Source: Bradyrhizobium sp. CCGB01
GTDB lineage: Bacteria > Pseudomonadota > Alphaproteobacteria > Rhizobiales > Xanthobacteraceae
Reading direction: 5' to 3'
Length of the DNA: 64,000 bases
Assembly (NCBI RefSeq): GCF_024199795.1
Contig: NZ_JANADK010000001.1
Span: forward strand, 4,092,001 to 4,156,000
The position numbers and the translations under genes were made by a program. Positions 29,511-53,921 of the stretch are shown one piece after another. Below the pieces are notes generated by a model. The model did not search any database. It was not told the DNA's origin and saw only the letters and a list, made by a program, of their open reading frames with translations. Every line of letters starts with the position of its first letter. Within the stretch, counting starts at the first letter, position 1.

Positions 29511-29523
29511 GATGGTCTCCTCG

Positions 29524-31260: not shown

Positions 31261-31272
31261 ATCGGCCTCCAG

Positions 31273-33246: not shown

Positions 33247-33480
33247 CGCCAAGACTCCAACTTGTTCAATTTCATCAAGTTCGGCGCTTTTGCCGTCGTC
33301 CAAAAGCCAACCAGATCCCGAGCCGTTCGAGCGATCGCGTAGCTGACAGGAGCGGGGCGAGCCCATGTCGGGAGAGCCGCCGCTGGCCATGAAGAACCAT
33401 GACCAAGCGCAGCGATCGGCCGGCCAGTCGCAAGACAGCGAGCGCTGCGACACGCCGCAATTTTACAAGGACTGTACTGA

Positions 33481-34474: not shown

Positions 34475-35113
34475 CTATTCGAAAACCAATGACGGTGTGG
34501 CAAGAAAGAGAAGGGCGCCGAAGAACGTCATCACGGACAACAGGACGACACCCAATCTGAACAGGCGCTTCTCGCTCTCAGTCTCGATCGGGTTTCCGGT
34601 GAAGGCCTCGAACGCAGGAATGGCCAAGCGGCCGCCATCGAGAGGAGGAATGGGAAGGAAGTTGAACAGTGCGATGGCCACCAAAGGCGAGCAGATCAAG
34701 TAGGTGATGCCGCTACCGGCCTTACCGAGGCGCACAAGAGTGAAATCGGCATCCGGGGCATAGGTCGCAAATATCAAGATGCAGGCCAATGCAGCATTGG
34801 AGAGTGGGCCGGCAACAAGGATGACCGCGCGCTTTCCGAGAGGCAAACTCCGAAACGTCGCACGCGGCTTTGCGTCTGTGCGGGATAGCCTCGTCTGAGG
34901 ATGGGGCCCATCGAAAAAGCCGCAAGCAGATCGAAGGGGCAGAAGCTTGAATGCCCAGACCGTACCCGAGAGATCAGTAAATTCGGCGATTGCTGGCCCC
35001 AATCCGATGGTCACCGCCATTGTGGCCGAGCCGCGAGCGGCGCAGAGGTGGGCGAGCTCGTGAGCCACGAGTGTGCCATATCCACCAGCAGCGAGGGGGA
35101 GGGCATGCCACAT
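34475..35113 (-). CDS. Site-2 protease-like M50 membrane metallopeptidase
   Basis: 212 residues. It starts MWHALPLAAGGYGTL and at once reaches the zinc motif VAHELAHLCAARG (HExxH, residues about 18-22). A second metal-ligand motif PIPPLDGGRLAIP lies in the C-terminal half. Four to five hydrophobic segments are visible, including VILVAGPLSNAALACILIF. No PDZ domain is present. The start is within 5 bases of the flavin reductase stop; a longer in-frame reading to 35482 is only that gene's antiframe. M50 proteases cut membrane-bound regulators; the target here is unknown. The N-terminus looks short for an M50 protease, so it may be slightly truncated. Confidence 0.75.
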   Translation of the reverse strand: MWHALPLAAGGYGTLVAHELAHLCAARGSATMAVTIGLGPAIAEFTDLSGTVWAFKLLPLRSACGFFDGPHPQTRLSRTDAKPRATFRSLPLGKRAVILVAGPLSNAALACILIFATYAPDADFTLVRLGKAGSGITYLICSPLVAIALFNFLPIPPLDGGRLAIPAFEAFTGNPIETESEKRLFRLGVVLLSVMTFFGALLFLATPSLVFE

Positions 35114-35117
35114 GGCA

Positions 35118-35624
35118 TCAGCGACCCAAATTGGGACCCTCAGGCTGGAGCTGCCAATAGCGCCCTTTCGCGAATATGAGCGGACGGCCGGTCTCATGCG
35201 GGGCTTTATGAATCGCCAGAACCCGCGAGATGAAGAGCTCGTGGTCACCCCCATCGTGGCGCGCGTACTGCTCGCATTCCAAGGCCACCAGCACGCCGGG
35301 AAGGAGCGGAGTGTCGAACTGGCCATTGATCGAGCGGACACCGTCCCACTTGCCGCTCCTGGCGCGGGCAAACTGATTTGAGAGATCTTCCTGGCCTTCG
35401 CTGAGGACGTTGATTGCGTACCTGCGGCACGTTCGCCACTTCGCAAGACTAGCGGCGCCCAGATGGATGCTGAACACGACAAGGGGAGGATCCATCGACA
35501 CCGAGTTGAACGAGCTCATAGTCATGCCCAATTGCTCGCCCTCATCGGTCGTCGCAGTAACAATGATGACCCCAGTTGGGAACTGGCCAAGCGCGTCACG
35601 GAATTCTCTGTTGTCGAAAGTCAT
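35118..35624 (-). CDS. Flavin reductase (HpaC-like), partner of the monooxygenase
   Basis: 168 residues. MTFDNREFRDALGQFPTGVI, then VTATTDEGEQLGMTMSSFNS, SMDPPLVVFSI and FAKGRYWQL form the split-barrel flavin-binding domain of the HpaC/DIM6 family. It reduces FMN or FAD with NAD(P)H and hands the free flavin to an oxygenase. It is 102 bases downstream of the HpaB-type gene on the same strand, the usual pairing. Confidence 0.9.
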   Translation of the reverse strand: MTFDNREFRDALGQFPTGVIIVTATTDEGEQLGMTMSSFNSVSMDPPLVVFSIHLGAASLAKWRTCRRYAINVLSEGQEDLSNQFARARSGKWDGVRSINGQFDTPLLPGVLVALECEQYARHDGGDHELFISRVLAIHKAPHETGRPLIFAKGRYWQLQPEGPNLGR

Positions 35625-35726
35625 GGCTCTGTTTGCTCCTGGATCGCGCCTATGGGCATGTGCATTCGGCCGGCGAGCTTCGTGGCCTCGGACGAATCCG
35701 AGGCCGCGAGGGCCGGGCCCCTATTG

Positions 35727-37241
35727 TCATTTGGCGGGCGTGACTGCCTCTAATTGCTCGGAGACGGTGCGAGTTGGCGTGCCGCGCGAAGGGAGGTCGT
35801 AGCTTGCCATCAGCTTGTCGACGGTCTGATCGAGGGAGGACCAGGGCGCGAGCCTCATGCTATGGGCTCGAACGAGGAATGGAGGCCCGGCATAAAAGTT
35901 CTCATATTGGACGTGCCGGGCGCCAAACTCCGACGCCAGCAGGTCCCAGGCCAGCTTGTAGAGCTTCATCCGGTCGAGAGCGCTCTCGTGCTCGGTCGAC
36001 CAATAGGTCTCGAAGAGAGCGTTCATCTGGCCGTTTTCAACGATTGAGATGTCGGCCGGCATCTGAAAGATTGCGCCACCCATCAGCTCCCTCACGGTCG
36101 CGCATATCAGCCCATAATTGTCCTGGCACCAGCTCAGTGCCGCATACATGTAACGCTGATTGACGACGACATAGCCGTCGCCGACAGCCTGATGATCGGC
36201 GATTTGACCAGCAATCAGGCCGGCAATGGTGGCTTCCATGGCGGCAAGCCGTCCGAGTGTCTCCTGAACCGCCGGAATTCCACGGACGCCGGCCGACTTC
36301 GCAATCTTGTTCGCGAGCCCGAGGATCAGCTGAAGCTTTGCCCAGAAACGAACGTTGGATTGATGGTTTCCGAAGTAGTGGCCGCCTGTTTCCATGTAGA
36401 TTGCGCGGCTGAGATCGACGTTCCCGATCGTGAAAACACGTGACCACGGGACCTTCACGCTGTCACAGACGAGCATGCAATCGCTTTCGTCGAAGCGAGA
36501 GGAGAGGGGGTAGTCGAACGCGTTCGGGGCGGCCTGCTCCATCGAGCGTCTCGACCAAAGCGAAAGCCCCGGCGCGTTTGCAGGTACGGCGCAGGTCACG
36601 GCTTCCTTGATACGGTCCGGTGCCAGGGGAGTGAGGTTCCCGATCCAGATCTCGTCGCAAAATGCGCCCCCGGTCGCGAGCGTCTTCATTCCGTGGAGGG
36701 TGATCCCATCATTGTCCGTGGCCGAAACATGAAGCGCCGGTGATTTGAAGAACGTTGAACTCGCGTCGGACGAGTAGTTGCGTGCTCCCTGCGGAGGGTG
36801 CGTCGCGTAGCTGACGTAGAGGTCGTTATCCCGGACATAGGTGTAGTAGTCGAGGAGATGCTGCCTGAAGCCGTGGTTCGTGACATCGAACACTTCGGGT
36901 CGGCAGGTCATGCCGGTGATGAAGGACCCGACATGGTCGGGCGACCGGCCAAACAGCCCGTAGCTGGCGTCGGCCCAGGCTTTGTGCCCGGCCATGCGGA
37001 ATTCGAGGTCTTCACGGCTGCGCGGCTGCTTGAAATAGAAACTGTGGCGCTGGCCGTCCTCTGTAAAGGAGAGCCGGCCGGAGTGCTGCGGATCGCACTT
37101 GAGATCGAACAGCCGCGCGAAGCTCTGGGCCGAATTGCGAAAGGCTGGATGGGTTGTCACGTCATCGACGAGATGGCCGCCGAGGTAGATCTTGCGTCCG
37201 TCCTTGAGAGATCGAAGATAATTGGCGCCGGTCCTGAGCAT
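35727..37241 (-). CDS. HpaB-family FADH2-dependent monooxygenase
   Basis: 504 residues, the full family length. Clear segments are MLRTGANYLRSLKDGRKIYL, FRNSAQSFARLFDLK, GSFITGMTCRPEVF, the flavin-binding region (NYSSDASSTFFKSPALHVSA, DGITLHGMKTLATGGAFCDE), VPWSRVFTIGN and ELMGGAIFQMPAD. Members hydroxylate phenols, chlorophenols or heterocycles such as pyrrole-2-carboxylate using reduced flavin. The ring substrate cannot be told from sequence alone. Neighbouring imide and amide hydrolases hint at an N-heterocycle. A palindromic operator lies 17-33 bases upstream of the start. Confidence 0.88.
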   Translation of the reverse strand: MLRTGANYLRSLKDGRKIYLGGHLVDDVTTHPAFRNSAQSFARLFDLKCDPQHSGRLSFTEDGQRHSFYFKQPRSREDLEFRMAGHKAWADASYGLFGRSPDHVGSFITGMTCRPEVFDVTNHGFRQHLLDYYTYVRDNDLYVSYATHPPQGARNYSSDASSTFFKSPALHVSATDNDGITLHGMKTLATGGAFCDEIWIGNLTPLAPDRIKEAVTCAVPANAPGLSLWSRRSMEQAAPNAFDYPLSSRFDESDCMLVCDSVKVPWSRVFTIGNVDLSRAIYMETGGHYFGNHQSNVRFWAKLQLILGLANKIAKSAGVRGIPAVQETLGRLAAMEATIAGLIAGQIADHQAVGDGYVVVNQRYMYAALSWCQDNYGLICATVRELMGGAIFQMPADISIVENGQMNALFETYWSTEHESALDRMKLYKLAWDLLASEFGARHVQYENFYAGPPFLVRAHSMRLAPWSSLDQTVDKLMASYDLPSRGTPTRTVSEQLEAVTPAK

Positions 37242-37257
37242 TTCAGTGTCTCCAAAA

Positions 37258-37274
37258 TTAGTTTAGTAAACTAA
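37258..37274. promoter_or_regulatory. MarR-type operator, site 1
   Basis: TTAGTTTA-G-TAAACTAA is a perfect palindrome with a single central base, between the MarR stop and the monooxygenase start. It is the best of three related sites (others at 39464 and 46252). Confidence 0.75.
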
Positions 37275-37323
37275 ATAAATGGATCGGTTTATGGAGTCAA
37301 GCTGGCTTCTGGTCTCCTTGTAG

Positions 37324-37953
37324 CTATCGCGCAGGCCGCCTGCGACGCTTGGACGTCTGTCGCAGCGCGGCCTCGCGTTGGTCCGCAGCGACCTCGTTCA
37401 GCACGGAGATCGCGCTCTCGGCACGGGATATCAAGACGCTCAGTTCATTGGAGTAGGTGAGGGCACTGTTGCTATCGAGATGGCCGTAAAGTGCGTCATT
37501 GACCATCTGCTGTATGGGAGCAATTGCCGACAGCGAGGCGACGCCCTTGTCGGTCAATTCAAGAAAGCTGACGCGCCGGTCGTCGGGATTGACGATCTTG
37601 GCGAGGTAACCCTTCTCGACGAGGTCGGCGATCTCGACACTCGCATAAGCGTCGGTCATGTGCATTTCGCGCGCTATCGACCGGACGGTCCATTGCTGCT
37701 GGTCTGAAAGGCGCCCAACCGCCTGCATGAGCACATATTGAAAGGACGAAAGCCCGATCAGGGAGGCAAATCCGCTCCGAACAGTCTCGAGCAGGCCCGA
37801 AAGCACGAAATGCTGGTGGGTAATCCTGCGCACCAGCATGTCGGTCCCGTCGACCATGAGGGCGGTGCGGGAAATCGTCGGCGGGAGTTGAGGAGCGCGA
37901 GGCCGGGCCGCAGCGGGCTTGGCTTTCGTCATGCGCTCCTTGGACTTTGTCAT
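37324..37953 (-). CDS. MarR-family regulator of the catabolic cluster
   Basis: 209 residues. A basic, Pro-rich N-terminal tail of about 25 residues is followed by the MarR winged helix: SSFQYVLMQAVGRLSDQQQW, TVRSIAREMHMTDAYASVEI, ADLVEKGYLAKIVNPDDRRV (wing with DDRR) and FLELTDKGVASLSAI. The C-terminus is basic. It lies between the amidohydrolase/isomerase pair and the monooxygenase on the same strand. I infer that it binds the three AT-rich palindromes in the cluster and is released by a pathway metabolite. Confidence 0.88.
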   Translation of the reverse strand: MTKSKERMTKAKPAAARPRAPQLPPTISRTALMVDGTDMLVRRITHQHFVLSGLLETVRSGFASLIGLSSFQYVLMQAVGRLSDQQQWTVRSIAREMHMTDAYASVEIADLVEKGYLAKIVNPDDRRVSFLELTDKGVASLSAIAPIQQMVNDALYGHLDSNSALTYSNELSVLISRAESAISVLNEVAADQREAALRQTSKRRRRPAR

Positions 37954-37990
37954 CTCGGCTGTTCCTCAAAAGCCCGCAGCAAACGAATCG

Positions 37991-38755
37991 CTACCCTGCC
38001 ACCCGCGCGGGCCAGCCGTCGATTAGCACGCTTTGACCCGCCCCAACAGGGAGCGCGGCCCGGTGGCCAATGGCCCTGAGAACGGCCCAGCCGAGGCAAA
38101 GATTGGAGGAAAGGACCGGCTTGCCGGTGGCGCGGACGATGTCGGGAATGGCCCGCAGGGTCGGCGCGCCCGTACCGGTCAGGACGATCGCGTCGGCTGA
38201 TTGCCATTCCAGGCGCAGGACGGCTTCGACGATCCTAGCGGCACGAAGCTTGTAGATGTTGAGCGTATCGGCCGAGCCGAGGTCAATTCCTCCTTTCGCA
38301 GCCAGCTCAAACCCCGCCTGCGACCAGTATGAGAAGGAAGCTTCCTGCAGCCAGGTCGGGTAGGGGCCGAACAGCGCAATACGCCGCGCCCCGAGCTCAG
38401 TGAGGGCAAGTTCAATGGCCTCGGCCGAGGACAGGATCGGGTAACCGTAGAGCCGCGAAAGTTGTTCGAATTTGCGTCGGACCTTGTCCTCGCCGAGCAG
38501 ATAGGTTGTTGCCGTACAGGCGAAACCGAGGGCTCCGAGCCTGATCGCGCCGAACCCATCCAGGCTATCAGCCAAATTGAACAGGTAATCTCCGAACCTC
38601 TTGCGGGTGTCGGTAGGGTCGCCACGTAGCCGGGTTGTTAGCGTGAGCACGTCCGATGGCATCAGGGTGGCCATTTCGGGCTCCACGGTTGGATTGGACT
38701 GCGGCGGCGCGAAACCGACGATCCCTCCGGATCCATACTCAAAATCATTCGACAT
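37991..38755 (-). CDS. Maleate isomerase / arylmalonate decarboxylase-fold protein
   Basis: 254 residues of the Asp/Glu racemase superfamily: GSGGIVGFAPPQSNPTVEPE, LGALGFACTATTYL (Cys80), ALFGPYPTWLQE and ADAIVLTGTGAPTL. Maleate isomerases have a second Cys in the last motif (SCT/SCTN); here that position is Gly (residue 194). A Cys occurs later (SSNLCLGWAV, Cys220). So the enzyme has the first but perhaps not the second catalytic Cys, the reverse of arylmalonate decarboxylase. It overlaps the amidohydrolase gene by 11 bases. A role converting maleate to fumarate is inferred from context; decarboxylase or racemase activity is possible. Confidence 0.8.
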   Translation of the reverse strand: MSNDFEYGSGGIVGFAPPQSNPTVEPEMATLMPSDVLTLTTRLRGDPTDTRKRFGDYLFNLADSLDGFGAIRLGALGFACTATTYLLGEDKVRRKFEQLSRLYGYPILSSAEAIELALTELGARRIALFGPYPTWLQEASFSYWSQAGFELAAKGGIDLGSADTLNIYKLRAARIVEAVLRLEWQSADAIVLTGTGAPTLRAIPDIVRATGKPVLSSNLCLGWAVLRAIGHRAALPVGAGQSVLIDGWPARVAG

Positions 38756-39440
38756 TGTCGTGCTCCGTCATCTTGGCAAGGCTGTGAAGCAATTCATCGG
38801 TGGGAAGAACGTCGGCGTATTTCTGGGACATATCGAACAGGTTCACGCCGTGAGCGATCGGACTGCGGTCGTAAACGCACTCCTGTGGCACGGCGACGTG
38901 GAAATTGTAGGAGAACGCGTCGACCACGCTCGCGCGCACACAGCCTGACGTCGTGCATCCGGTCATAACGAGACTATCGACCTTGAGGTCTATGAGGTGA
39001 CTGGCGAGGGTGGTGCCAAAGAAAGCGCTCGGATGTTTCTTCGGAATCAAGATGTCGCCGTCGACCGGGGCGACCTCACGTACAAATTGATACCCGACCG
39101 GCGGGATCGTCATGATCGCAGGGACTTTTGCTGCGAGCCGGCCGCCGTCCTGCCGAACCTTCGGCGCGACATGGGGGAAGAGGACAGGCCAGCGTTTCCT
39201 CCTGAATAGTTCGAGCATCCTGCCGATATGCCCAACAGCCTGCCATGCGACGTCGCCGCATGACGTTGGATACTCTTCGACCGCTTGCCAAAAGGGCATT
39301 GGGATCGAGCCGGTCGTTCGATACTGCACATCGATGATCAAAAGCGCGGGTCTACGCCCAATGCCTGCTGCGCGGCCAAAGCCGGCTGCATCGTATGCGC
39401 GTCGATCCTCGTCGGTGATGATGCCGTCCCATGGTCGCAC
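38745..39440 (-). CDS. Isochorismatase-family amidohydrolase (maleamate/carbamoylsarcosine type)
   Basis: 231 residues with the complete triad: Asp37 in ALLIIDVQYRTTG, Lys134/135 in DILIPKKHPSAFFGT and Cys167 in MTGCTTSGCVRASV. TSGCVRA is typical of N-carbamoylsarcosine and maleamate amidohydrolases (NicF). It would release ammonia from a half-amide. It is the first gene of the leftward unit, divergent from the imidase-like gene with an operator-like palindrome in the 87-base gap. Confidence 0.88.
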   Translation of the reverse strand: MRPWDGIITDEDRRAYDAAGFGRAAGIGRRPALLIIDVQYRTTGSIPMPFWQAVEEYPTSCGDVAWQAVGHIGRMLELFRRKRWPVLFPHVAPKVRQDGGRLAAKVPAIMTIPPVGYQFVREVAPVDGDILIPKKHPSAFFGTTLASHLIDLKVDSLVMTGCTTSGCVRASVVDAFSYNFHVAVPQECVYDRSPIAHGVNLFDMSQKYADVLPTDELLHSLAKMTEHDNVE

Positions 39441-39463
39441 GATCAGATCTCCTTTTCAGAAAA

Positions 39464-39480
39464 ATAGTTTGCAAAACTAA
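39464..39480. promoter_or_regulatory. MarR-type operator, site 2
   Basis: ATAGTTTGCAAAACTAA, 13 of 17 positions identical to site 1. It lies between the divergent amidohydrolase and imidase-like genes, so one bound repressor could control both. Confidence 0.65.
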
Positions 39481-39527
39481 ATATCGTCAGCTAGCGTGAC
39501 GGTCAATAGAGGAAGCGTGGAGGGGCC

Positions 39528-40487
39528 ATGGCCAAGTTTGACACCAAGATGAACCGGTATCCGTTCGTGCCCATTACGCAGCGGCCGACCTACGAATGGC
39601 CGGACGGCAAGCGTCTTGCCGTCTATTTTGCGCTGAACATCGAGGCCTTCGAGTTCGGGCGGAATCCGGGACCGGATTTCACGACGATGCCGGCCGCTCC
39701 GTTTCATCGGGGTTATGCGTACCGGGATTTCGGAAATCGGGTCGGTGTCTGGCGCCTGCTCGATCTCTTCCAGGAGTTCGAAATTCCGCTTTCTGTGCTC
39801 GCCAATACCGCTGTCTACGATGCTTATCCCGCACTCATGGCCGCGTTCCGGCAACGTGGCGACGAACTCGTCGGTCACGGCCGCACCAATTCGGAGCGGC
39901 AGATCGATATGACCGAAGACGAGGAACGCGACATGCTGAAGGAGGTCCGGCAGCGCTTCGAAAAGGAGGAGGGGGTGGCCCCGCAAGGCTGGCTCGGCCC
40001 CTTCATCTCACAGAGCACGAAAACGCCCGAACTCCTGGTCGAGCAAGGCTTCGGCTACATGCTCGACTGGTTCTACGACGAGCAACCCCAGCTGTTCCGG
40101 ACAGATCTCGGTCCAATTCTCAGCGTGCCGTACCCGTCGATGGAGTTGAACGATCTGCCGGCGGTCTTCAACCGGCGGGTCAGCGACGCCGAATTTGCCG
40201 ACCTGCTGATCGATGCATTCGAACAGCAATTGCAGGACTCCGAGAAATATCCGCTCGTCTTCTCGGCTGCGCTCCATACCTTCGTCATGGGACAACCGCA
40301 CCGGACACGAGAGTTGCGGCGCGCGCTCGCGCATATCGCGTCTCACCGCGACAGGGTGTGGATCACGACGGCCGGCAAGATTGCGGCGCATGCCCGCTCG
40401 CTGCCTCAGGGGACGCTGGTCAGCCCCGATATCGCAGGAGCCGGTAGTTCGACAGCGCAGACTGCACATCGTGCGCCCGATGTCTGA
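39528..40487 (+). CDS. PuuE/imidase-type polysaccharide deacetylase-fold hydrolase
   Basis: 319 residues. WPDGKRLAVYFALNIEAFEF, FGNRVGVWRLLDLFQEFEIP, ELVGHGRTNSERQIDMTEDE, APQGWLGPFISQSTKTPELL and FGYMLDWFYDEQP follow PuuE-type allantoinases and bacterial cyclic-imide hydrolases, which use the deacetylase barrel for ring amides rather than sugars. I therefore read it as an imidase opening a cyclic imide or ureide. The half-amide product is what the divergent amidohydrolase would take. It is the first gene of the rightward operon with the Liv transporter. Confidence 0.82.
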   Translation: MAKFDTKMNRYPFVPITQRPTYEWPDGKRLAVYFALNIEAFEFGRNPGPDFTTMPAAPFHRGYAYRDFGNRVGVWRLLDLFQEFEIPLSVLANTAVYDAYPALMAAFRQRGDELVGHGRTNSERQIDMTEDEERDMLKEVRQRFEKEEGVAPQGWLGPFISQSTKTPELLVEQGFGYMLDWFYDEQPQLFRTDLGPILSVPYPSMELNDLPAVFNRRVSDAEFADLLIDAFEQQLQDSEKYPLVFSAALHTFVMGQPHRTRELRRALAHIASHRDRVWITTAGKIAAHARSLPQGTLVSPDIAGAGSSTAQTAHRAPDV

Positions 40488-40559
40488 GTTTCAGGGGAGG
40501 GTCGATATGACGCTGCCAAGTCTCGCCGGATTCCTGTCAATCGAACGAGCGAGGTGGTC

Positions 40560-41432
40560 ATGATTGCCCAGCAATTCGTTAACGGCCTCATGCTTGGCGG
40601 CGTTTATGTGATGATTGCTGTCGCCTTTACGCTGGCGATCGGCGTCCTCAACTTCCTCAATTTTTCCATTCCGGGCATCTTCATGATCGCGGGAATGGTC
40701 TCGTGGGCGGCGCTGAGGAGCGGCCAGCACTGGCTGTTCGCATTTGGGCTGGCGCTGTGCGCGAGCGCGATCGTGGGTCTGGCGGTCTATCTGCTGACCT
40801 ATCGACCGAGCAGCGACAGTGACCCGGAGGTCCCGCTCGTCAGTTCACTCGGATTCCTGGTTCTTCTTGAGAACCTTGTGGTCCTTTGGCTGGGGTCGGA
40901 TCAACAGTCGTTTCCTGCCCTCATTGCCGACTTCAACTTCAGAGCCGGCTCAATCGTCGTTGGCGGAGCTCAAGTGCTGAGCCTTGTCCTCTCGCTCAGT
41001 TTCGTTGTCGCCCTTTCCCTGTCGCTGCGCTTCACGAATCTCGGTCGGCAGGTGAGGGCGATCGCCGAAAGCCGGCGCACGGCATCGATGCTTGGCGTGA
41101 ACGTCGGCGCCGTGGTCCCAAGGGTGTTCGTGCTGAGCGCAGTCTTCACCGGGATCGGCGGCATTCTCTTTGCGATCAGCTACCTCCAGGTCTCCTCGAC
41201 GATGGGCGAGAATATCGGTTTCAAGGGCATCAGCGCGATGATCATCGGCGGCATGGGCAATATCTGGGGTGCGGTTGCAGGAGGCCTTCTGATCGGCCTG
41301 GTCGAGATCCTGTCGACGCAATTCCTGGGCGCCGACTTCGTCAATATCGGTGTCTACGGCTTGTTGCTCGCGTTGCTCGTCGCCAAGCCCGAAGGGCTTT
41401 TTGGCAAGGCTGCAGCCAGGGAGAAGCTCTGA
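40560..41432 (+). CDS. livH: Branched-chain-type ABC permease LivH
   Basis: 290 residues with about eight membrane helices. MIAQQFVNGLMLGGVYVMIA, VAFTLAIGVLNFLNFSIPGI and MIIGGMGNIWGAVAGGLLIG are LivH hallmarks. GAGG lies before the ATG at 40560. The stop overlaps the next start as TGATG. With the other Liv genes it would import the substrate of this pathway; Liv-type systems also carry amides, urea and aromatic acids. Confidence 0.9.
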   Translation: MIAQQFVNGLMLGGVYVMIAVAFTLAIGVLNFLNFSIPGIFMIAGMVSWAALRSGQHWLFAFGLALCASAIVGLAVYLLTYRPSSDSDPEVPLVSSLGFLVLLENLVVLWLGSDQQSFPALIADFNFRAGSIVVGGAQVLSLVLSLSFVVALSLSLRFTNLGRQVRAIAESRRTASMLGVNVGAVVPRVFVLSAVFTGIGGILFAISYLQVSSTMGENIGFKGISAMIIGGMGNIWGAVAGGLLIGLVEILSTQFLGADFVNIGVYGLLLALLVAKPEGLFGKAAAREKL

Positions 41433-42283
41433 TGTCGGGTTATCAGACCGGCCTGATTGTGCTGCTCGCCCTCAACACCATTGCCGCTTACGGCGTCTAC
41501 CTTCCGATGGCGGCCGGGCAGCTGAATCTCGGAATCGCCGGGTTCATGGCGATCGGCGCCTATGCCGCGGCATATTTGACCAATGAATGTGGATGGCCGG
41601 CGCTGGCTGCTGTCGGGGCCGGCGGGGGGGCAGCGGCGATCCTGGCTTTCGCCGTTGCCGCGCCAATACTCAGAACCCAAGGCATCTACCTGTCCCTTGC
41701 AACGTTTGCATTGGGGCAGGTGATCTCTGCGATCTTCCTCAATCTCGAGGTCGTCGGCGGCGCCGCGGGCTATCCCGTCTCTATGCACATCGGCGCATAC
41801 CTCGTCGTCGCAGCTGCTGCCGCGATCGTTCTACTTGTATGCCTGGTGTCCACGACACGGGTAACCATCTACTTCGCGGCCGTCAAAAACGATCCTCTGG
41901 TCGCGGACCTCCTGGGGCTGAACGTAAAAGCTCTCGGCATCTCCGCGCTGACGGCAGGTGCAGGTATTGCCGGCGTCGGCGGAGGGCTCTATGCGCATTA
42001 TTTCAACTATATCGAGGCCCAGTATTTCGGGGTGATGCTGAGCACGTACACGGTACTGTACGTGCTGCTCGGAGGCACACAATCGGTTTTCGGACCGCTC
42101 ATCGGGGCCGCGATCTTCACGTTTTTGCCGGAAGCGCTAAGATCGAGCTCCCAGTGGCGATACGCCATTTTCGCACTCTTCATCATCATCTTCATGGCCC
42201 TGCGTCCGCAGGGGCTGATCACGCGCGGCCTGTCGCGTCGTCGCGTGCAGGCTGAGGCACAAGGCGGAACGACTGCATCATGA
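41432..42283 (+). CDS. livM: Branched-chain-type ABC permease LivM
   Basis: 283 residues, about eight helices. AAGQLNLGIAGFMAIGAYAA, ILRTQGIYLSLATFALGQVI and GGTQSVFGPLIGAAIFTFLP identify LivM. It overlaps livH by one base and livG by four (ATGA). The C-terminal tail is basic (RRRVQAEAQ). Confidence 0.9.
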   Translation: MSGYQTGLIVLLALNTIAAYGVYLPMAAGQLNLGIAGFMAIGAYAAAYLTNECGWPALAAVGAGGGAAAILAFAVAAPILRTQGIYLSLATFALGQVISAIFLNLEVVGGAAGYPVSMHIGAYLVVAAAAAIVLLVCLVSTTRVTIYFAAVKNDPLVADLLGLNVKALGISALTAGAGIAGVGGGLYAHYFNYIEAQYFGVMLSTYTVLYVLLGGTQSVFGPLIGAAIFTFLPEALRSSSQWRYAIFALFIIIFMALRPQGLITRGLSRRRVQAEAQGGTTAS

Positions 42284-43041
42284 CCGACTTCCTTTCCATC
42301 CAAAATCTGTCGAAATCGTTCGGGGGGCTCGAAGTCGTGCGCGACCTTACGTTTGACGTGCCGGAACGATCCGCCACTGCATTGATCGGTCCCAACGGCG
42401 CTGGAAAGACGACGGTGTTCAACCTCATCAGCGGCGTGTACCCGGTCACCTCCGGAAGCATCCGGTTTCGAGACGAAGATATCGTCGGTCTGTCGTCTCG
42501 ATATCGCATCAGACGCGGGATTGCGCGGAGCTTTCAGAATATCCGCCTGATACCGCGCCTGTCGGTGGTCGATAATCTGCTCATCGGGCAGCACGCCACG
42601 TTAAAGCGGTCTCTCGACGTGCTGCGTCCATTTCGGCTCGTTCGCGATCATGAGTGGATACGGGCTGCCAAGAACGAACTGGCCGCGTTTGGTCTGCGCG
42701 AGTACGCCGACGAACCGGTGGGATTGCTTCCCTATGGGGTTCGCAAGCGTGTGGATTTGATCCGCGCGACATTGTCATCGCCATCGGTTCTCATGCTGGA
42801 CGAGCCAGCGGCGGGGTTGAATGCATCGGAAACACGCAAGCTGCACGGTCACCTTGAAATCCTGAAGCAGCGAGGGACCACGCTCTTGGTGATCGAGCAC
42901 GACATGCATTTCATCCGTTCGATCTGTGAGAAAATCGTCGTTCTGAACTTCGGCTGCAAAATCGCCGAAGGTTCATTCGATCAAGTCAGAACAGATGCGC
43001 AGGTTCGTGAGGCCTATCTTGGAGTGGAGCAGGCAGCATGA
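42280..43041 (+). CDS. livG: ABC ATPase LivG
   Basis: 253 residues. Walker A GPNGAGKTT, the LivG insertion FQNIRLIPRLSVVDNLLIGQ, Walker B LMLDEPAAGLN and switch VIEHDMHFI are visible. The signature motif reads LLPYGVRKRVDLIRA, as usual in LivG (LPYGxxR). It overlaps livM and livF by four bases each. Confidence 0.92.
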   Translation: MTDFLSIQNLSKSFGGLEVVRDLTFDVPERSATALIGPNGAGKTTVFNLISGVYPVTSGSIRFRDEDIVGLSSRYRIRRGIARSFQNIRLIPRLSVVDNLLIGQHATLKRSLDVLRPFRLVRDHEWIRAAKNELAAFGLREYADEPVGLLPYGVRKRVDLIRATLSSPSVLMLDEPAAGLNASETRKLHGHLEILKQRGTTLLVIEHDMHFIRSICEKIVVLNFGCKIAEGSFDQVRTDAQVREAYLGVEQAA

Positions 43042-43808
43042 GTAGGTGGATTCTCGACGTCGAGAACTTGTCGGCGCGTTACGGACGCGTCGAGGCACTT
43101 GTCGGCTTTTCGCTCCGGGTCGCACACGGTGAGATCGCGACAGTTGTCGGCGCAAATGGAGCCGGCAAGAGTACTCTTCTGCATTCAATTCTTGGGGCAG
43201 TCTCGCCAACGAGCGGCAAGGTCGTCTTTGCAGGCGCCGAGGTTACGCGGTGGCCAATTCATCAGCGCATCGAGGCGGGGTTGGTCCTGGTGCCGGAGGG
43301 CCGCCGAATTCTGGTGTCCATGACAATCGAAGAGAACCTGCTGCTTGGTGCCCATATGCGGCAGGACACAGCCACCGTACGGCGTGAAATCGACGACATC
43401 TACGACCGGTTCCCCAATCTGGCGCAGCGCCGAACCCAGAATGCAGCTTGCTTGTCTGGTGGCGAGCAGCAGATGCTCGCGCTCGGTCGCGCGATGCTGG
43501 CAAAGCCACGGCTCCTGATGATGGACGAACCGTCGCTTGGCCTCTCACCACTGTTTGTCACAAGGCTGTTCGAGCTCATCCGGGACTACAACAGCAAGGG
43601 GCTGAGCGTACTCCTGGTCGAGCAGAATACCGCGAATGCTCTGAAAATTGCGCACCAGGCGACGGTTCTGGAGCTCGGGCGCGTCGCCATGCAGGGCGAT
43701 GCTGCTGCGATCGCCGGAAGTTCTCGGCTCCAGGAAGCCTATCTCGGCGGTTCAGCGGTTGAGGCTGCAGAAGTCGGTCATGTGAGGAAGTCGATAGGGA
43801 GGCGATAA
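43038..43808 (+). CDS. livF: ABC ATPase LivF
   Basis: 256 residues. Walker A GANGAGKSTLL, GLVLVPEGRRILVSMTIEEN (typical LivF PEGR), signature LSGGEQQMLALGRAM, Walker B LLMMDEPSLGL. The stop overlaps the binding-protein start as TAATG. Confidence 0.92.
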   Translation: MSRWILDVENLSARYGRVEALVGFSLRVAHGEIATVVGANGAGKSTLLHSILGAVSPTSGKVVFAGAEVTRWPIHQRIEAGLVLVPEGRRILVSMTIEENLLLGAHMRQDTATVRREIDDIYDRFPNLAQRRTQNAACLSGGEQQMLALGRAMLAKPRLLMMDEPSLGLSPLFVTRLFELIRDYNSKGLSVLLVEQNTANALKIAHQATVLELGRVAMQGDAAAIAGSSRLQEAYLGGSAVEAAEVGHVRKSIGRR

Positions 43809-44983
43809 TGAAATACAAGGTAAGCTTGGTGGGACTGCTGATGGCCACCGCATTTGCATCGGTGGCTTATGCGCACGAGGAGGATCTCGTCATCGGCTTG
43901 TCGATGGCGCGGACCGGCACTTTCGTAAGCGTCGCGAATGCGAATGAGATTGCCGTAGATATGGCGGTTGACGAGATCAATCGTTCCGGTGGCGTCAATG
44001 GCCTGCCACTCAAAGTCGTCAAGTTCGATACGGCAGGAGATCCGAAGCAGGCGGTCCTCGCCGTCGAGCAGTTTGCGCGTGATAGTGGAGCCCTCGCTGT
44101 CGTCGGCCCGTTCTCCTCGAGCGAGGCGCGGGTGGCGTTCTCGGCCGGGGAGCGGCTCGGGATTGCCCAGATGTCGATGTCGTCGTCGGCGCCGGGTGTG
44201 GCGGCACCATTCAAATTCGCGTTCCGCAATACGGTCGACGAAGGCTTGGTCATCGAAACGGTTCTCAAGGCGATGCGGGCCAAGGGGCTCAGCATGCGGA
44301 CAGCCGCCATCGCTTACGCGACTGATGATGCCGTATCCAAGGCGGTTGGAACGGCAGTACTGCCGGAGACATTGCTGAAGATCGAGGTGCCCGTGAGTGG
44401 ATTCGTCGATTTCCCGTACAAGGCGTTCGACATGTCGGCACAGGTGTCGAAGCTTGCCCAGTTGAAGCCGGATATTATCGGTGTCGGAGCACCGCCCGAA
44501 GCCATGATCAATCTCGCCAAGGAAATGAAGCGGCAGGGCGTCAATGCGCGCCTGTTTGCTGGAACGACTGTCGGAGATCCTGACCTCCCGATCCGGTTTG
44601 GAGATTCAGGTGAGGGGACAATCGTCGGGTCGCCCTTCTATAGCGATCTGAACGATGCCGTCCGTGCCTTTGCAAAGTCGTTCGCAGTGAGAGCGGAGGC
44701 CGCTAAGATTGGCCGCACCGTGCCGAACCAGACCGACATATCCAGCTACGACATCGTCTACCTGTATGCGGAGGCCATGAAACGGGCCCGGGTGACCGGT
44801 GAGCATTCAAAACTCGCTGCCGAGCGCTCTGCCATCAAGGACGAACTGCGGAAAATGAAGGACTACCCGGCGCTCGGCGGAAAGATCACGTTCCGTGAGA
44901 ATGGTGATGCCATCAAGCCCATCTACGTGCTTGAGGCCAAGGGCGGACGCTGGACCTTGTTCGATCAGCGCACTGGCGATTGA
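43808..44983 (+). CDS. Periplasmic binding protein, Liv type
   Basis: 391 residues. Signal peptide MKYKVSLVGLLMATAFASVA YA; the mature part opens EEDLVIGLSMARTGTFVSVA and contains INRSGGVNGLPLKVV, AVVGPFSSSEARVAF and DISSYDIVYLYAEAM, as in type I leucine/amide-binding proteins. It is the last gene of the operon and is followed by an excellent terminator. The ligand is unknown; from context an imide, amide or N-heterocyclic acid is likely. Confidence 0.88.
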   Translation: MKYKVSLVGLLMATAFASVAYAHEEDLVIGLSMARTGTFVSVANANEIAVDMAVDEINRSGGVNGLPLKVVKFDTAGDPKQAVLAVEQFARDSGALAVVGPFSSSEARVAFSAGERLGIAQMSMSSSAPGVAAPFKFAFRNTVDEGLVIETVLKAMRAKGLSMRTAAIAYATDDAVSKAVGTAVLPETLLKIEVPVSGFVDFPYKAFDMSAQVSKLAQLKPDIIGVGAPPEAMINLAKEMKRQGVNARLFAGTTVGDPDLPIRFGDSGEGTIVGSPFYSDLNDAVRAFAKSFAVRAEAAKIGRTVPNQTDISSYDIVYLYAEAMKRARVTGEHSKLAAERSAIKDELRKMKDYPALGGKITFRENGDAIKPIYVLEAKGGRWTLFDQRTGD

Positions 44984-44994
44984 GATACTACCCG

Positions 44995-45020
44995 GACGGT
45001 GCCGGCTTGCCGGCACCGTC
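44995..45020 (+). terminator. Terminator of the imidase-Liv operon
   Basis: An 11-bp perfect stem gacggtgccgg / ccggcaccgtc with a 4-base loop, 11 bases after the binding-protein stop; also usable for the convergent alcohol dehydrogenase gene. Confidence 0.85.
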
Positions 45021-45032
45021 CAACCGGTTTGG

Positions 45033-46097
45033 TTATGACGGGCGCCCCGGCACCAGGACGGCTCGTCCAACGATGCGGCCTTCCTTAAGGTCAGACAGAG
45101 TCTCATGGGCGCTTTCGAGGGGCCGGGTCACAATCGGCATCGGGTCGACGCCGGTCCGCACCAAGCCCATCAATTCGATCAGGTCTCGCCGGCTACCAAC
45201 AAACGAACCGGATACCGTAATCGCGCGCAAAGGCATCGTTGCCAGGGATAGGGCTCGCTCGCCGCCGTAGAGACCCACGATCACGTAGGTTCCCCCCTTG
45301 GCAAGGGTCGCCATCGAGAGGTCCCACGAAGCCGGGGAGCCGACGAAGTCGATGATCGCGTGGATGCCACCCTCGGAGCGCTCGGCAAGGAGTTTAGCGA
45401 AGGCGTCTGTGGTGGGATCGAGCGCAGCAATTGCGCCTGCTGAGAGGGCCGCGCGCCGCTTGTCAGGGTCGATGTCGGCGATGATCGCCCCGGACCGTCC
45501 CATCGCCTTCAATAGCGAAAGGCACATCAAGCCCAGCCCGCCGGCACCCACGATCAGGATAGGCTTTCTCAGTCCACGAGGACCGAGCTTCTTCAGCGCG
45601 GAATAGGCTGTCAGTCCCGAGCACGCATAGGGGGCGGCCTGCTCGGGCGAGAGTGCGGGAATATCGACCAGGTAGCGGGGGTGCGGGACCAGGACGTGGT
45701 CGGCATAACCGCCTGGACGCAGGACGCCGAGATATCGGGGAGTCGGGCACAAATGCTCGTCCGAACTCTTGCAGACCTGACACTCGCCACATCCGAACCA
45801 TGGATAGACCAGATAAGTTCTGCCGGCTTCGACAAGATGGAGCGCTTCGTGGCCAATTGCCACGACCTCGCCAACGACTTCATGCCCCATCGTGTGCGGC
45901 AGCTTTTGGCCACGGTCCGACATCTTCATCATCTTTCCGCCGCCGAGGTCATAGCCGCCTTCCCAGATGTGGAGGTCGGTATGACAAACGCCGCAGGCGC
46001 GCACCCTGAGGAGAACCTCATTGCCCTCGGGGACGGGCGTGGATGTTTCGATGCATTCGAGGGGAGCCCGGTATTGGCTGAGCGCAAAACTTTTCAA
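45033..46097 (-). CDS. Zinc-dependent alcohol dehydrogenase
   Basis: 354 residues when started at TTG 46097, where GGAGGA precedes by 6 bases; an upstream ATG (46151) has no site. Catalytic zinc ligands are in RACGVCHTDLHIWEG and LPHTMGHEVVG, the structural zinc in GCGECQVCKSSDEHLC, and the NAD fold is ILIVGAGGLGLMCL. It oxidises alcohols or reduces aldehydes. It lies convergent to the Liv operon and divergent to the aldehyde dehydrogenase, so an alcohol-aldehyde-acid step in the same pathway is likely. Confidence 0.9.
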   Translation of the reverse strand: MKSFALSQYRAPLECIETSTPVPEGNEVLLRVRACGVCHTDLHIWEGGYDLGGGKMMKMSDRGQKLPHTMGHEVVGEVVAIGHEALHLVEAGRTYLVYPWFGCGECQVCKSSDEHLCPTPRYLGVLRPGGYADHVLVPHPRYLVDIPALSPEQAAPYACSGLTAYSALKKLGPRGLRKPILIVGAGGLGLMCLSLLKAMGRSGAIIADIDPDKRRAALSAGAIAALDPTTDAFAKLLAERSEGGIHAIIDFVGSPASWDLSMATLAKGGTYVIVGLYGGERALSLATMPLRAITVSGSFVGSRRDLIELMGLVRTGVDPMPIVTRPLESAHETLSDLKEGRIVGRAVLVPGRPS

Positions 46098-46251
46098 GTT
46101 TTCCTCCGTTGTGAGTGATCCTGAATGACATGCGAACCGTTGCCCCGACATGGACGAGCTTCGTGGTGAGCCTGACCCGATCGTTCAAGCTGCGCGCGTC
46201 GCGCGTGGTCCGATTGACATCCCGGTGACGTATCTATAGCAATATAGTTAG

Positions 46252-46268
46252 GTTGGTTAAATAACTAA
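46252..46268. promoter_or_regulatory. MarR-type operator, site 3 (weaker)
   Basis: GTTGGTTAAATAACTAA, 11 of 17 identical to site 1, 11 bases before the aldehyde dehydrogenase start. An extra tagtta precedes it. The match is weaker than sites 1 and 2. Confidence 0.45.
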
Positions 46269-46279
46269 ATGAGGCTGGG

Positions 46280-47803
46280 ATGTTTGAGCGAGCTTTGAAG
46301 AATTTCGATATTGGTCCTCTGAACTCCGGCGCTTACGCCCATGGAGACGGATGGAGCCCAACCACAGACAGAAGTCCCTTCGATGCGGTCGACCCCGCCG
46401 AAGACAAGGTTGTGGCAAAAATTGCCGGCGCGAATGAGCGGGATTACGAGCGCATCATTCGCTGTGCTCAGGCCGCGCAAATCGATTGGGCCTCTGTTCC
46501 TGCGCCGAGGCGAGGTGAGCTGGTTGGGCGGATTGGGGCCTTGGCCTGTGAGCATCTTGACGATCTGGCCGCGCTTATCGTGGTCGACACGGGCAAGGCT
46601 CTTGGCGAGGCAAAGGCTGAAATTCGCGAAGTCATCGACATGGCGGCCATGGCGGCGGGACAATCTCGCATGATGTACGGCTCGGTTCAGCAGTCCCAGC
46701 GCAGCAAGCACCGAATGTACGATCAATGGCTGCCGCTAGGCGTCGTTGGGGTGATCACGGCCTACAATTTCCCGGCCTCGGTCTGGGCCCAAAATGCCTT
46801 CCTTGCGGCCATCGGCGGCAATACCGTCATCTGGAAACCCAGTCCGAAAGTGCCGCTTACCGCGCTCGGCTTGCAGCAGATCTGCAACAGAGCGATGAGC
46901 GAGCTCGAGCTCGACGGTGTCTTCTCGCTCTTCATGCCAGGCGATAACAGCGTGGCAGAGCTCCTTGTCTACGACCGACGGGTTGCCTTGGTGTCGTTCA
47001 CGGGATCGAGCGCCGTCGGCCGCAGGGTCGCGGATGTCGTGGGAAGTACATTGGGACGCCGCTACTTGCTCGAATGCTCAGGCAATAACGGCTGCATCGT
47101 TGATCAGACCGCCGACCTCAAGCTGGCGGCGCGCAGCATTGCCTTTGGTGCAATCGGCACGACCGGTCAGCGCTGCACAAGCACAAGACGTGTCATTGTC
47201 CAGCGCTCGGTCGCTGAACCACTCGTCGCACTTTTGAAGGAAGCATTTGGCCAGATCAAAGTCGGCGATCCACGCGAGCCCGCGACGATTGTCGGCCCGC
47301 TGGTCGACCGGGACGCTGTCATGCACTTCGACAGGGCTGTGCGGAATGCAAGGGACGCTGGCGGCAAAGTCGTCTTCGGTGGAAAGCGCATTGATCGACC
47401 GGGCTACTATGTCGAACCGACGCTCATCACGGATCTGCCACCGGATCTGCCGTCTGTTCAGAAGGAGACGTTCGCTCCGATCGTCTATGTCTTTCTCTAC
47501 GATACGCTTGAGGAAGCCATCCGCATCAACAACAGCGTACCGCAGGGATTGTCGTCGGGTATACACAGCACGGATCTCTCCAATATCGAGCTGTTCCTGT
47601 CGGCCGCGGGGAGCGACTGCGGGATTGCGAGGGTCAATATGGGGACGACCGGTGCGGACATCGGTGCCGCGTTTGGAGGTGAGAAGGAAACAGGTGGCGG
47701 ACGCACGGCCGGGTCTGACGCCTGGAAGGGTTACATGCGAAGACAGAGCGTGTGCGTCAACTGGGGAGGGACCTCTCCTTGGGACGGATGTATCCGCCTC
47801 TGA
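46280..47803 (+). CDS. ALDH7-type aldehyde dehydrogenase (piperideine-6-carboxylate dehydrogenase-like)
   Basis: 507 residues. GVVGVITAYNFPASVWAQNA, LVSFTGSSAVGRRVADVV, catalytic Glu265 in LLECSGNNGCIV and Cys299 in TTGQRCTSTRRVIV are visible. EKETGGGRTAGSDAWKGYMR and the early GDGWSPTTDRSPFDAVDPAE fit the ALDH7/AmaB group rather than betaine-type enzymes. Such enzymes oxidise semialdehydes such as aminoadipate semialdehyde. Start ATG 46280 follows GAGG. An operator-like site lies directly upstream, so I place it in the MarR regulon. Confidence 0.88.
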   Translation: MFERALKNFDIGPLNSGAYAHGDGWSPTTDRSPFDAVDPAEDKVVAKIAGANERDYERIIRCAQAAQIDWASVPAPRRGELVGRIGALACEHLDDLAALIVVDTGKALGEAKAEIREVIDMAAMAAGQSRMMYGSVQQSQRSKHRMYDQWLPLGVVGVITAYNFPASVWAQNAFLAAIGGNTVIWKPSPKVPLTALGLQQICNRAMSELELDGVFSLFMPGDNSVAELLVYDRRVALVSFTGSSAVGRRVADVVGSTLGRRYLLECSGNNGCIVDQTADLKLAARSIAFGAIGTTGQRCTSTRRVIVQRSVAEPLVALLKEAFGQIKVGDPREPATIVGPLVDRDAVMHFDRAVRNARDAGGKVVFGGKRIDRPGYYVEPTLITDLPPDLPSVQKETFAPIVYVFLYDTLEEAIRINNSVPQGLSSGIHSTDLSNIELFLSAAGSDCGIARVNMGTTGADIGAAFGGEKETGGGRTAGSDAWKGYMRRQSVCVNWGGTSPWDGCIRL

Positions 47804-47968
47804 CCAAGCCGAAGTTGATTCACCGGGGTGGCGGCAAGTCATGAGCTCAAGCCGCCACTGCGGTTTGAGACCGTCGCTCGTAGATGTGCTGGGAAGGGCG
47901 GGAATCGCCTCAGGGACGATGTATCGGACGAGCGATCAGCCCAATCCAACAGTCGGATCCAGTTAGCC

Positions 47969-48697: not shown

Positions 48698-48818
48698 CAG
48701 ACCTCGACCTCTTGGCCAACCCCGTACGGCGCCGCGTCAAGGCGTGCCTCGGCTATCGTCGCATGGAAAAATCGGCGCTTGTTTGCCGACATTGGCGCAA
48801 GTTTCGGTTTCGTCATGA

Positions 48819-48838
48819 ACCTGTCAAATAGCACAGGC
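48819..48838 (+). promoter_or_regulatory. lux box upstream of luxI
   Basis: ACCTGTCAAATAGCACAGGC has ACCTGT and ACAGG in the positions of the consensus ACCTGTAGGATCGTACAGGT. It lies 51 bases before the luxI start, a usual activating position. Confidence 0.8.
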
Positions 48839-48889
48839 GCTGCAATCGCTGCTCTCTGGTCTGGTGAACTCCTTCCAACGGAGTTCGCT

Positions 48890-53823: not shown

Positions 53824-53921
53824 CAACAATCGGCCTCCGCGGGCAATTCTCGCGGGGGCCGTTCTCTCGCCCCGATTGACCGGGCCAAGCAGAAAGGGGA
53901 CAGTCTCGCCGGGGCCATCCA

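What the first reader, a model, noticed from the sequence alone, without database searches (positions are those of the whole stretch)
34475..47803. Candidate catabolic cluster for a cyclic imide or N-heterocycle
Seen: HpaB-type monooxygenase, flavin reductase, MarR regulator, maleate-isomerase-fold protein, isochorismatase-type amidohydrolase with intact D-K-C, PuuE/imidase-type hydrolase, a full Liv transporter, an alcohol and an ALDH7-type aldehyde dehydrogenase. Known: bacterial imidases open cyclic imides to half-amides, amidases of the NicF group release ammonia, and maleate isomerase gives fumarate. Inference: maleimide to maleamate to maleate to fumarate, fed by ring hydroxylation by the two-component monooxygenase (pyrrole- or pyridine-like substrates). 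I know no described gene set with exactly this makeup.
Basis: partly seen in the sequence, partly recalled or inferred. Interest (0 to 1): 0.75.

Follow-up and report, generated by a model that had tools for sequence, protein, structure and literature searches.

The report
Likely nitrogen-ring breakdown gene regulon
A probable mobile DNA element in a Bradyrhizobium genome carries an uncharacterised set of genes, apparently switched together by one regulator, that most likely oxidises and hydrolyses a nitrogen-containing ring compound, and one of its enzymes has an unusual active site.

Summary
In detail: flavin reductase, HpaB-type oxygenase, MarR, maleate-isomerase-fold protein, isochorismatase, PuuE-type hydrolase, Liv transporter, ADH and ALDH lie at 35118-47803. 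The ORF at 34475 is an M50 protease, not part of the set. Six core genes recur together in three further Bradyrhizobium-type contigs and in Afipia, where TctCBA stands in place of Liv. Contig sharing extends the oxygenase-hydrolase link to a Mesorhizobium MAG and other contigs. A palindrome, TTAGTTT-N3-AAACTAA, marks the oxygenase promoter and the divergent amidase/hydrolase promoter; these are the only two copies (1 mismatch or fewer) in the 9.3 Mb genome. A weaker conserved copy precedes ALDH. I infer one MarR regulon: import, ring oxidation, hydrolytic ring opening, deamidation, then conversion of a cis-diacid. The literal maleimide-to-fumarate route is unproven: the 'isomerase' has the maleate-isomerase fold and first Cys, but Gly-Thr-Gly replaces the second catalytic Cys throughout its listed homologs, the mirror image of arylmalonate decarboxylase; the ring hydrolase is PuuE-like and lacks the H-x3-H motif of an imidase relative. 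Substrate unknown; a carboxylated heteroaromatic is favoured. The set lies beside TraR/TraI-type quorum genes and other genes of an integrative-element kind.

The parts
35118..35624 (-). HpaC/FerA-like flavin reductase, reductase component
   Evidence: PF01613, 129.9 bits
35727..37241 (-). HpaB-type (group D) flavin monooxygenase, oxygenase component
   Evidence: PF11794+PF03241; 82-94% orthologs in four named records; R99 kept, H103 and Y145 at the places of Thermus HpaB Y104 and H142
37258..37274 (.). Operator-like palindrome 1, upstream of the oxygenase gene
   Evidence: TTAGTTTAGTAAACTAA, 0 mismatches; 0.01 sites at up to 2 mismatches expected per window; conserved
37324..37953 (-). MarR-family regulator
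   Evidence: MarR and MarR_2 just below Pfam cut-offs; NCBIfam MarR-type hits; the Afipia ortholog passes the Pfam cut-offs
37991..38755 (-). Maleate-isomerase/AMDase-fold enzyme with Cys80 only (Cys2 replaced by Gly194-Thr195-Gly196)
38745..39440 (-). Isochorismatase-type amidohydrolase of the N-carbamoylsarcosine/maleamate amidohydrolase group
   Evidence: PF00857 91.1 bits; nearest solved 26st, 4l07, 3ot4; D37-K134-C167, R192
39464..39480 (.). Operator-like palindrome 2, between the divergent amidohydrolase and ring hydrolase genes
   Evidence: ATAGTTTGCAAAACTAA, 1 mismatch; conserved, also in Afipia
39528..40487 (+). PuuE-like cyclic amidohydrolase, candidate ring opener
40554..41432 (+). 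LivH-type permease
   Evidence: PF02653
41432..42283 (+). LivM-type permease (start taken at the ATG at 41432)
   Evidence: PF02653, scanned as 41429-42283
42280..43041 (+). LivG-type ATPase
   Evidence: PF00005, PF12399
43038..43808 (+). LivF-type ATPase
   Evidence: PF00005
43808..44983 (+). LivK-type (HAAT) binding protein
   Evidence: PF13458 167.8 bits; nearest solved 4obb
45033..46151 (-). Zinc alcohol dehydrogenase (found in the Bradyrhizobium-type copies)
   Evidence: PF08240+PF00107; 86-87% orthologs in L112, L114, L116
46248..46264 (.). Weaker operator-like palindrome 3, upstream of ALDH
   Evidence: TTAGGTTGGTTAAATAA, matrix score 20.7; best score in 20 control stretches 11.3; but one of 22 genome places at up to 3 mismatches
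46280..47803 (+). ALDH7-type aldehyde dehydrogenase (found in the Bradyrhizobium-type copies)
   Evidence: NF050084 593.4 bits, below cut-off 730; nearest solved include ALDH7A1

Best explanation
A MarR-controlled catabolic regulon, probably cargo of an integrative element, that takes up and degrades a small nitrogen-containing ring compound, most likely a heteroaromatic acid. Proposed order: uptake by Liv (or TctCBA in Afipia); where needed, side-chain oxidation alcohol -> aldehyde -> acid by ADH/ALDH; ring oxidation by the two-component flavin monooxygenase to a lactam/imide-like ring; hydrolytic C-N opening by the PuuE-type hydrolase; release of ammonia from the half-amide by the NicF/CSHase-type amidohydrolase; conversion of the resulting cis-diacid (cis-trans isomerisation, or decarboxylation/protonation) by the Cys80 enzyme to a central metabolite. 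Shown by computation: gene content, synteny, shared palindrome, folds, residue states. Inferred: every reaction, their order, the substrate class, and that this MarR binds the palindrome.
For: Six-gene core kept in three other Bradyrhizobium-type contigs and Afipia. In Afipia TctA, TctB and TctC genes stand where Liv is in the window; TctC is nearest among solved chains to a terephthalate-binding protein, a hint at a carboxylate. 13 of 30 listed HpaB homologs of >=63% identity share a longest-contig length with a listed isomerase-fold or PuuE homolog (2 of the 13 are Bradyrhizobium), against 0 of 88 homologs of 52-59%; Mesorhizobium MAG tags EOR16_29995 (HpaB) and EOR16_30005 (isomerase-fold) are close together. 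The only two genome places of the palindrome at <=1 mismatch are at the HpaB and amidohydrolase/PuuE promoters; both places are kept in all five loci read (window, L001-L004); a third precedes ALDH in 4 of 4 copies. PuuE fold and nearest solved enzymes, amidohydrolase triad, maleate-isomerase fold. In 18 stretches chosen around more distant HpaB genes an isomerase-fold gene occurs in 9, against 0 of 20 control stretches. Precedent for ring oxidation, then imidase, then amidase: HxnM/HxnN in fungal nicotinate breakdown (PMC9304392, passages seen).
Against: No substrate, transcript or activity data. All the enzyme families cover many substrates. PuuE itself opens a hydantoin, not a plain imide. 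The related cluster L069 has HpaB, amidohydrolase, isomerase-fold and Liv (63-71%) but no PuuE match in its 19 kb, so the ring hydrolase is not always there. Other 46-55% HpaB/isomerase-fold loci lie beside CoA-ligase, thiolase, acyl-CoA dehydrogenase or peptidase genes, not N-heterocycle genes; PuuE relatives in 3 of 18 against 0 of 20 is not significant (p 0.10). The isomerase-fold enzyme lacks one catalytic Cys. The four Bradyrhizobium-type copies sit beside the same kind of element genes and are not independent. The third palindrome is weak.
Confidence: 0.55

Rival explanations
1. One reading: a pyrrole or pyridine is oxidised to maleimide, then maleamate, maleate and fumarate.
Against: Second catalytic Cys absent in 120 of 120 listed homologs; ring hydrolase not of the CIH type by the motif tested; the amidohydrolase carries a 12-residue insertion missing in the L069 relative, perhaps for a larger substrate; oxidation of pyrrole to maleimide would need two oxidations (chemistry, not tested).
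Confidence: 0.15
2. A hydantoin/ureide route: an imidazole-type ring is oxidised to a hydantoin, opened by the PuuE-type hydrolase to an N-carbamoyl acid, which the CSHase-type amidohydrolase cleaves; the racemase-fold enzyme handles stereochemistry.
Confidence: 0.22
3. The monooxygenase and the Cys80 enzyme act as an aromatic hydroxylase plus decarboxylase on a carbocyclic acid, and the PuuE/isochorismatase pair only removes an amide group from a conjugated substrate.
For: HpaB and isomerase-fold genes pair in distant loci (9 of 18), mostly without the hydrolases (amidohydrolase in 1 of 18, PuuE in 3 of 18), some beside CoA-ligase, acyl-CoA dehydrogenase or thiolase genes; the Cys80/Gly194 site mirrors AMDase Gly74/Cys188.
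Against: In the clade of the window the PuuE-type hydrolase travels with them and shares the palindrome; both hydrolases together point to a C-N ring. The paralogs in those distant loci differ, with Met at the place of Cys80 in 9 of 9 aligned.
Confidence: 0.1

Closest known systems
nic-type nicotinate/nicotine lower pathway (NicF maleamate amidohydrolase + NicE maleate isomerase)
   Same: Isochorismatase-type amidohydrolase with D-K-C (nearest solved include 4l07 and 3ot4; that these are Ami/NicF is recalled) next to a maleate-isomerase-fold gene
   Different: Ring hydroxylation by HpaB/flavin reductase, PuuE-type ring hydrolase, no ring dioxygenase among the annotated genes of the set, second isomerase Cys absent
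Fungal hxn nicotinate pathway (HxnM cyclic imidase + HxnN amidase), PMC9304392 (passages seen)
   Same: Logic of ring oxidation, C-N opening of a cyclic imide by a polysaccharide-deacetylase-fold enzyme, then deamidation
   Different: HxnM is of the CIH/HP0310 branch; HxnN is of another amidase family; none of the passages seen names an HpaB-type oxygenase or an isomerase
PuuE allantoinase
   Different: 122.8 bits against a TIGR03212 cut-off of 424.6; 27% identity; neighbours are not recognised purine-breakdown genes
Arylmalonate decarboxylase (AMDase), PMC4996985 (passages seen)
   Different: Cys at position 74 and Gly at 188, the reverse of AMDase; the paper reports no Cys74 among its 58 candidates, though Gly74 was one of its search criteria
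RutB/RutF pyrimidine system
   Same: Isochorismatase hydrolase and flavin reductase next to a flavin oxygenase
   Different: Oxygenase is HpaB-type instead of a luciferase-type RutA (recalled); RutB 40.8 bits against cut-off 377.95

Membership tests
Maleate cis-trans isomerase (NicE/Iso) | Maleate-isomerase branch of the Asp/Glu racemase fold | tested here: met
Maleate cis-trans isomerase (NicE/Iso) | First (nucleophilic) Cys | tested here: met
   Cys80 aligns with the first Cys of 4fq5/4fq7; C in 109 of 120 listed homologs. Its nucleophile role is recalled, in line with the 2xed title
Maleate cis-trans isomerase (NicE/Iso) | Second catalytic Cys (C194/C200) | tested here: not met
   Gly194-Thr195-Gly196 at that place in 120, 119 and 120 of 120 listed homologs; alignment
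Arylmalonate decarboxylase | Gly74 and Cys188 | tested here: not met
   Cys80 and Gly194 at these places
Arylmalonate decarboxylase | Dioxyanion hole T75, S76, Y126, G189 | tested here: inconclusive
   T81 and Y132 kept; A82 and T195 differ (sequence set by eye against the motifs quoted)
Hydantoin/allantoin racemase | Two catalytic Cys | tested here: not met
   Only the first is present; requirement as described in PMC12661438 passages
Cyclic imide hydrolase (CIH/HxnM/HP0310 type) | H-x3-H motif as in HP0310 (metal role recalled) | tested here: not met
   HGRTN against HGYSH in 3qbu; H117, G118, T120, N121 invariant in 38 aligned sequences
Cyclic imide hydrolase (CIH/HxnM/HP0310 type) | Hydrolysis of cyclic imides | not testable with these tools
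   needs assay
PuuE allantoinase | TIGR03212 curated cut-off | tested here: not met
   122.8 bits against 424.6
PuuE allantoinase | PuuE fold and Glu36 place occupied by Glu | tested here: met
NicF/CSHase-type amidohydrolase | D-K-C triad | tested here: met
   D37-K134-C167, also in L001-L004 and L069
NicF/CSHase-type amidohydrolase | C-terminal DRxxxxHxxLFDxxxKYxDV-like stretch shared by the nearest solved chains | tested here: met
   alignment; R192; the damaged L001 copy loses the KYxDV end
HpaB two-component monooxygenase (group D) | HpaB_N + HpaB domains with a separate flavin reductase | tested here: met
HpaB two-component monooxygenase (group D) | 4-hydroxyphenylacetate hydroxylase equivalog cut-off | tested here: not met
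   269.4 against 480.2 and 225 against 885.2 bits
HpaB two-component monooxygenase (group D) | Arg/Tyr/His of Thermus HpaB (R100, Y104, H142; role recalled) | tested here: not met
   R99 kept, H103 and Y145 at the other two places; all three invariant in 41 aligned sequences, window included

The most novel reading that the evidence does not exclude
The regulon encodes an undescribed degradation pathway for a carboxylated five-membered N-heterocycle (pyrrole-type), in which the HpaB-type oxygenase makes a lactam/imide that a PuuE-type, H-x3-H-free hydrolase opens, and in which the Cys80/Gly194 enzyme is a naturally inverted relative of arylmalonate decarboxylase: a new activity (one-Cys isomerase or an S-type decarboxylase/protonase) of the Asp/Glu racemase superfamily.
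Probability: 0.2. Interest if true: 0.75.

Novelty: new variant of a known kind. Interest (0 to 1): 0.5.

Why it matters
It gives a complete, testable parts list (transporter, oxygenase, ring hydrolase, amidase, diacid enzyme, regulator and its likely operator) for a pathway whose substrate is unknown, and a rare enzyme clade (hits at E<=1e-40 in 6 of 385 genomes of the class, own included) with a natural active site that resembles one made by mutation in AMDase (entry 3ixl). If it opens nitrogen rings it adds a hydrolytic route to N-heterocycle breakdown that may move between soil rhizobia on an integrative element.

Tried and rejected
Hydantoin racemase reading of 37991-38755: tested by fold and by Cys state, weakened. 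Canonical maleate isomerase: second Cys absent. Canonical 4-hydroxyphenylacetate hydroxylase: far below equivalog cut-offs. Using LivK or TctC to name the ligand: nearest solved chains are generic HAAT and Bug/terephthalate-type proteins, suggestive only. UbiD of the distant cluster L077 is nearest to 6h6x/6h6v (146.2 and 144.9 bits; that this is HmfF, a furan/pyrrole-dicarboxylate decarboxylase, is recalled), a weak hint at five-membered rings. Plasmid relatives of the isomerase-fold protein (9 records, all under 60%) and of the PuuE-like protein (25 records, all under 60%): 8 regions read (4 of 9 and 4 of 25 records); no HpaB-type gene is annotated there and my gene calls gave no match to the window's HpaB. 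The same script saw none in six stretches around 36-46% isomerase-fold relatives from the five other genomes (L094-L099, some cut short by contig ends), nor was one found in the 15 kb read around the hit (L118). These loci tell against a fixed link at such distances. Wider searches with the isomerase-fold protein found few carriers: 6 of 385 (class), 1 of 398 (phylum), 5 of 265 (genus), 1 of 280 (a family with many TctC genes, presumed Burkholderiaceae); own genome counted in the first three. Papers: 10 searches answered, none listing this gene set; passages read in PMC6165268, PMC7356986, PMC9304392, PMC13101512, PMC4996985, PMC12661438. Distances in the predicted models could not be measured, as no coordinates were laid in the Python box; so whether conserved Cys220 (119 of 120) sits in the active site is open.

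The third palindrome is weak: 3 mismatches, one of 22 genome places at up to 3 mismatches, while the reversed-pattern control gave 70; it rests on its place and its conservation in 4 of 4 ADH/ALDH promoters, which are not independent.
Full report
1. What is there. On the minus strand: flavin reductase 35118-35624, HpaB-type oxygenase 35727-37241, MarR regulator 37324-37953, maleate-isomerase-fold protein 37991-38755, isochorismatase-type amidohydrolase 38745-39440 (the last two overlap by 11 bp). On the plus strand: PuuE-like hydrolase 39528-40487 and LivH, M, G, F, K up to 44983. Then ADH 45033-46151 (-) and ALDH 46280-47803 (+). The frame at 34475 is an M50 protease (PF02163) and I leave it out.

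2. Is it a unit? Four loci with close orthologs of the oxygenase were found among named genomes (82-94%): B. barranii subsp. apii (L001), B. stylosanthis (L002), Afipia massiliensis (L003) and a record labelled Frankia sp. RB7 (L004), whose contig length equals that of G204:C108, a genus-mate of the window. All four carry relatives of the flavin reductase, oxygenase, MarR, isomerase-fold, amidohydrolase and PuuE-like proteins (the Afipia reductase only 40%). The three Bradyrhizobium-type copies also keep Liv, ADH and ALDH. In the Afipia stretch no Liv or ADH match was found and the only ALDH match is a 27% relative 8 kb away; TctC, TctB and TctA genes stand between PuuE and the amidohydrolase gene. 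So the core is six genes and the transporter looks exchangeable. The B. barranii copy is damaged: an IS66-type element sits at the 3' end of the amidohydrolase gene and an IS4/5-type transposase gene lies between the palindrome and the oxygenase gene.

3. Independent linkage. Protein searches list the longest contig of each hit (best 120 listed per search). Of 30 listed HpaB homologs at 63% identity or more, 13 share that exact contig length with a listed isomerase-fold or PuuE homolog, three with both; two of the 13 are Bradyrhizobium. Of 88 homologs at 52-59%, none does. This is indirect and rests on equal lengths, but a Mesorhizobium MAG supports it by tags EOR16_29995 (oxygenase) and EOR16_30005 (isomerase-fold). 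From the family sample (115 of 296 genomes with a hit at E<=1e-100) I chose 18 stretches of 11-20 kb around more distant oxygenases (46-55%): a relative of the isomerase-fold protein is in 9 of 18 and of MarR in 6 of 18, against 0 of 20 control stretches for each (Fisher p 0.0003 and 0.007); PuuE relatives in 3 of 18 against 0 of 20 (p 0.10, not significant); amidohydrolase in 1 of 18. The control stretches come from five genomes. L069 has MarR-HpaB-amidohydrolase-isomerase-LivHMGFK in one run, Liv at 63-71% identity, without a PuuE match. Other loci keep the oxygenase and isomerase-fold pair in other surroundings. Thus the pair looks old and general; the hydrolases mark the clade of the window.

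4. One regulon. The amidohydrolase/PuuE intergenic region and the region upstream of the oxygenase share the palindrome TTAGTTT-N3-AAACTAA. In the window it occurs at 37258 (0 mismatches) and 39464 (1 mismatch), and 0.01 sites at up to 2 mismatches are expected by shuffling. In the whole genome these are the only two places at 1 mismatch or fewer; the reversed-pattern control has none. L001, L002, L003 and L004 each have both sites with at most 2 mismatches, including Afipia with its different transporter; 20 control stretches (380 kb) have none. A matrix from nine such sites then finds a third place, 46248-46264, 15 bp before the ALDH gene, scoring 20.7; it is conserved in L112, L114 and L116 (19.2-20.4), which were not used to make the matrix, and the best score in 20 control stretches is 11.3. 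At up to 3 mismatches, however, the genome holds 22 such places and the reversed control 70, so this third site counts mainly by position and conservation. That the local MarR binds these sites is inference.

7. Setting. Right of the set lie a TraR-like LuxR regulator (47828-48697), a TraI-type autoinducer synthase (48779-49528), ArdC (50532-51800), DUF736, a RovC/DUF2285-like gene and a DUF3363 protein (that RovC relates to DUF2285 is recalled); LuxR/LuxI relatives are also beside the set in L112, L114 and L116, ArdC in L112 and L114. This looks like an integrative conjugative element of rhizobia (family recalled; ends and integrase not sought). Carriage is sporadic: 5 of 265 genomes of the genus, own included, have the isomerase-fold gene at E<=1e-50, one of them only 50% identical.

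8. Reading. Import, oxidation, hydrolytic opening, deamidation and conversion of a cis-diacid is the simplest pathway that uses all parts; I give it 0.55. The literal maleimide route gets 0.15, a hydantoin route 0.22. Novelty: the families are known; the combination and the Cys80/Gly194 clade were not found described in the open-access library under ten searches, which cannot exclude subscription papers.

Noticed in passing
window 47828-49528 and 50532-62803: TraR-like LuxR regulator, TraI-type autoinducer synthase, ArdC, DUF736, RovC-like gene and DUF3363 protein: an integrative-conjugative-element-like module beside the catabolic set, LuxR/LuxI relatives also beside it in L112, L114, L116.
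   Followed up: partly
L001 4931-7398 and 9085-9927: B. barranii copy carries an IS66-type element at the 3' end of the amidohydrolase gene and an IS4/5-type transposase gene between the palindrome and the oxygenase gene; this copy looks decayed.
   Followed up: partly
G000:C1:2762884 and 7092037 (L006, L007): Two further HpaB homologs in the own genome with identical score and identity, suggesting a duplicated segment.
   Followed up: no
window 28206-33390: OprB-type porin with an OMP beta-barrel domain, a 577-residue ABC permease and an ATPase with the AAA_assoc_C domain lie next to the set; similar genes lie on the same side in L002 (by Pfam) and, by size, in L001 and L004.
   Followed up: no
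window 34475-35100: M50 (RseP-like) protease frame between the flavin reductase and the porin/ABC genes.
   Followed up: no
window 19526-24464: Serine recombinase (Resolvase + Recombinase domains) followed by a 967-residue UvrA-like protein.
   Followed up: no
window 4431-8459: Three-subunit molybdenum hydroxylase of the xanthine/CO dehydrogenase type.
   Followed up: no
window 62884-63999: Fic-domain protein with DUF4172.
   Followed up: no
L069 7740 and L077 1563: Similar palindrome-like sites (ATAGTAAAGTAACTTAA, TTAGTAAAGTTACTTAA) upstream of the first genes of two related oxygenase/Liv clusters, perhaps operators of sister MarR proteins.
   Followed up: no
L104 4036-10204 (Variovorax sp. 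RA8 plasmid): PuuE-like gene (49%) followed directly by an amidase gene and divergent from hydantoinase A/B genes, another ring-hydrolase/amidase pairing.
   Followed up: no
L077 1600-3009: UbiD-type decarboxylase, nearest solved 6h6x/6h6v, in a cluster with HpaB, isomerase-fold and Liv relatives.
   Followed up: partly
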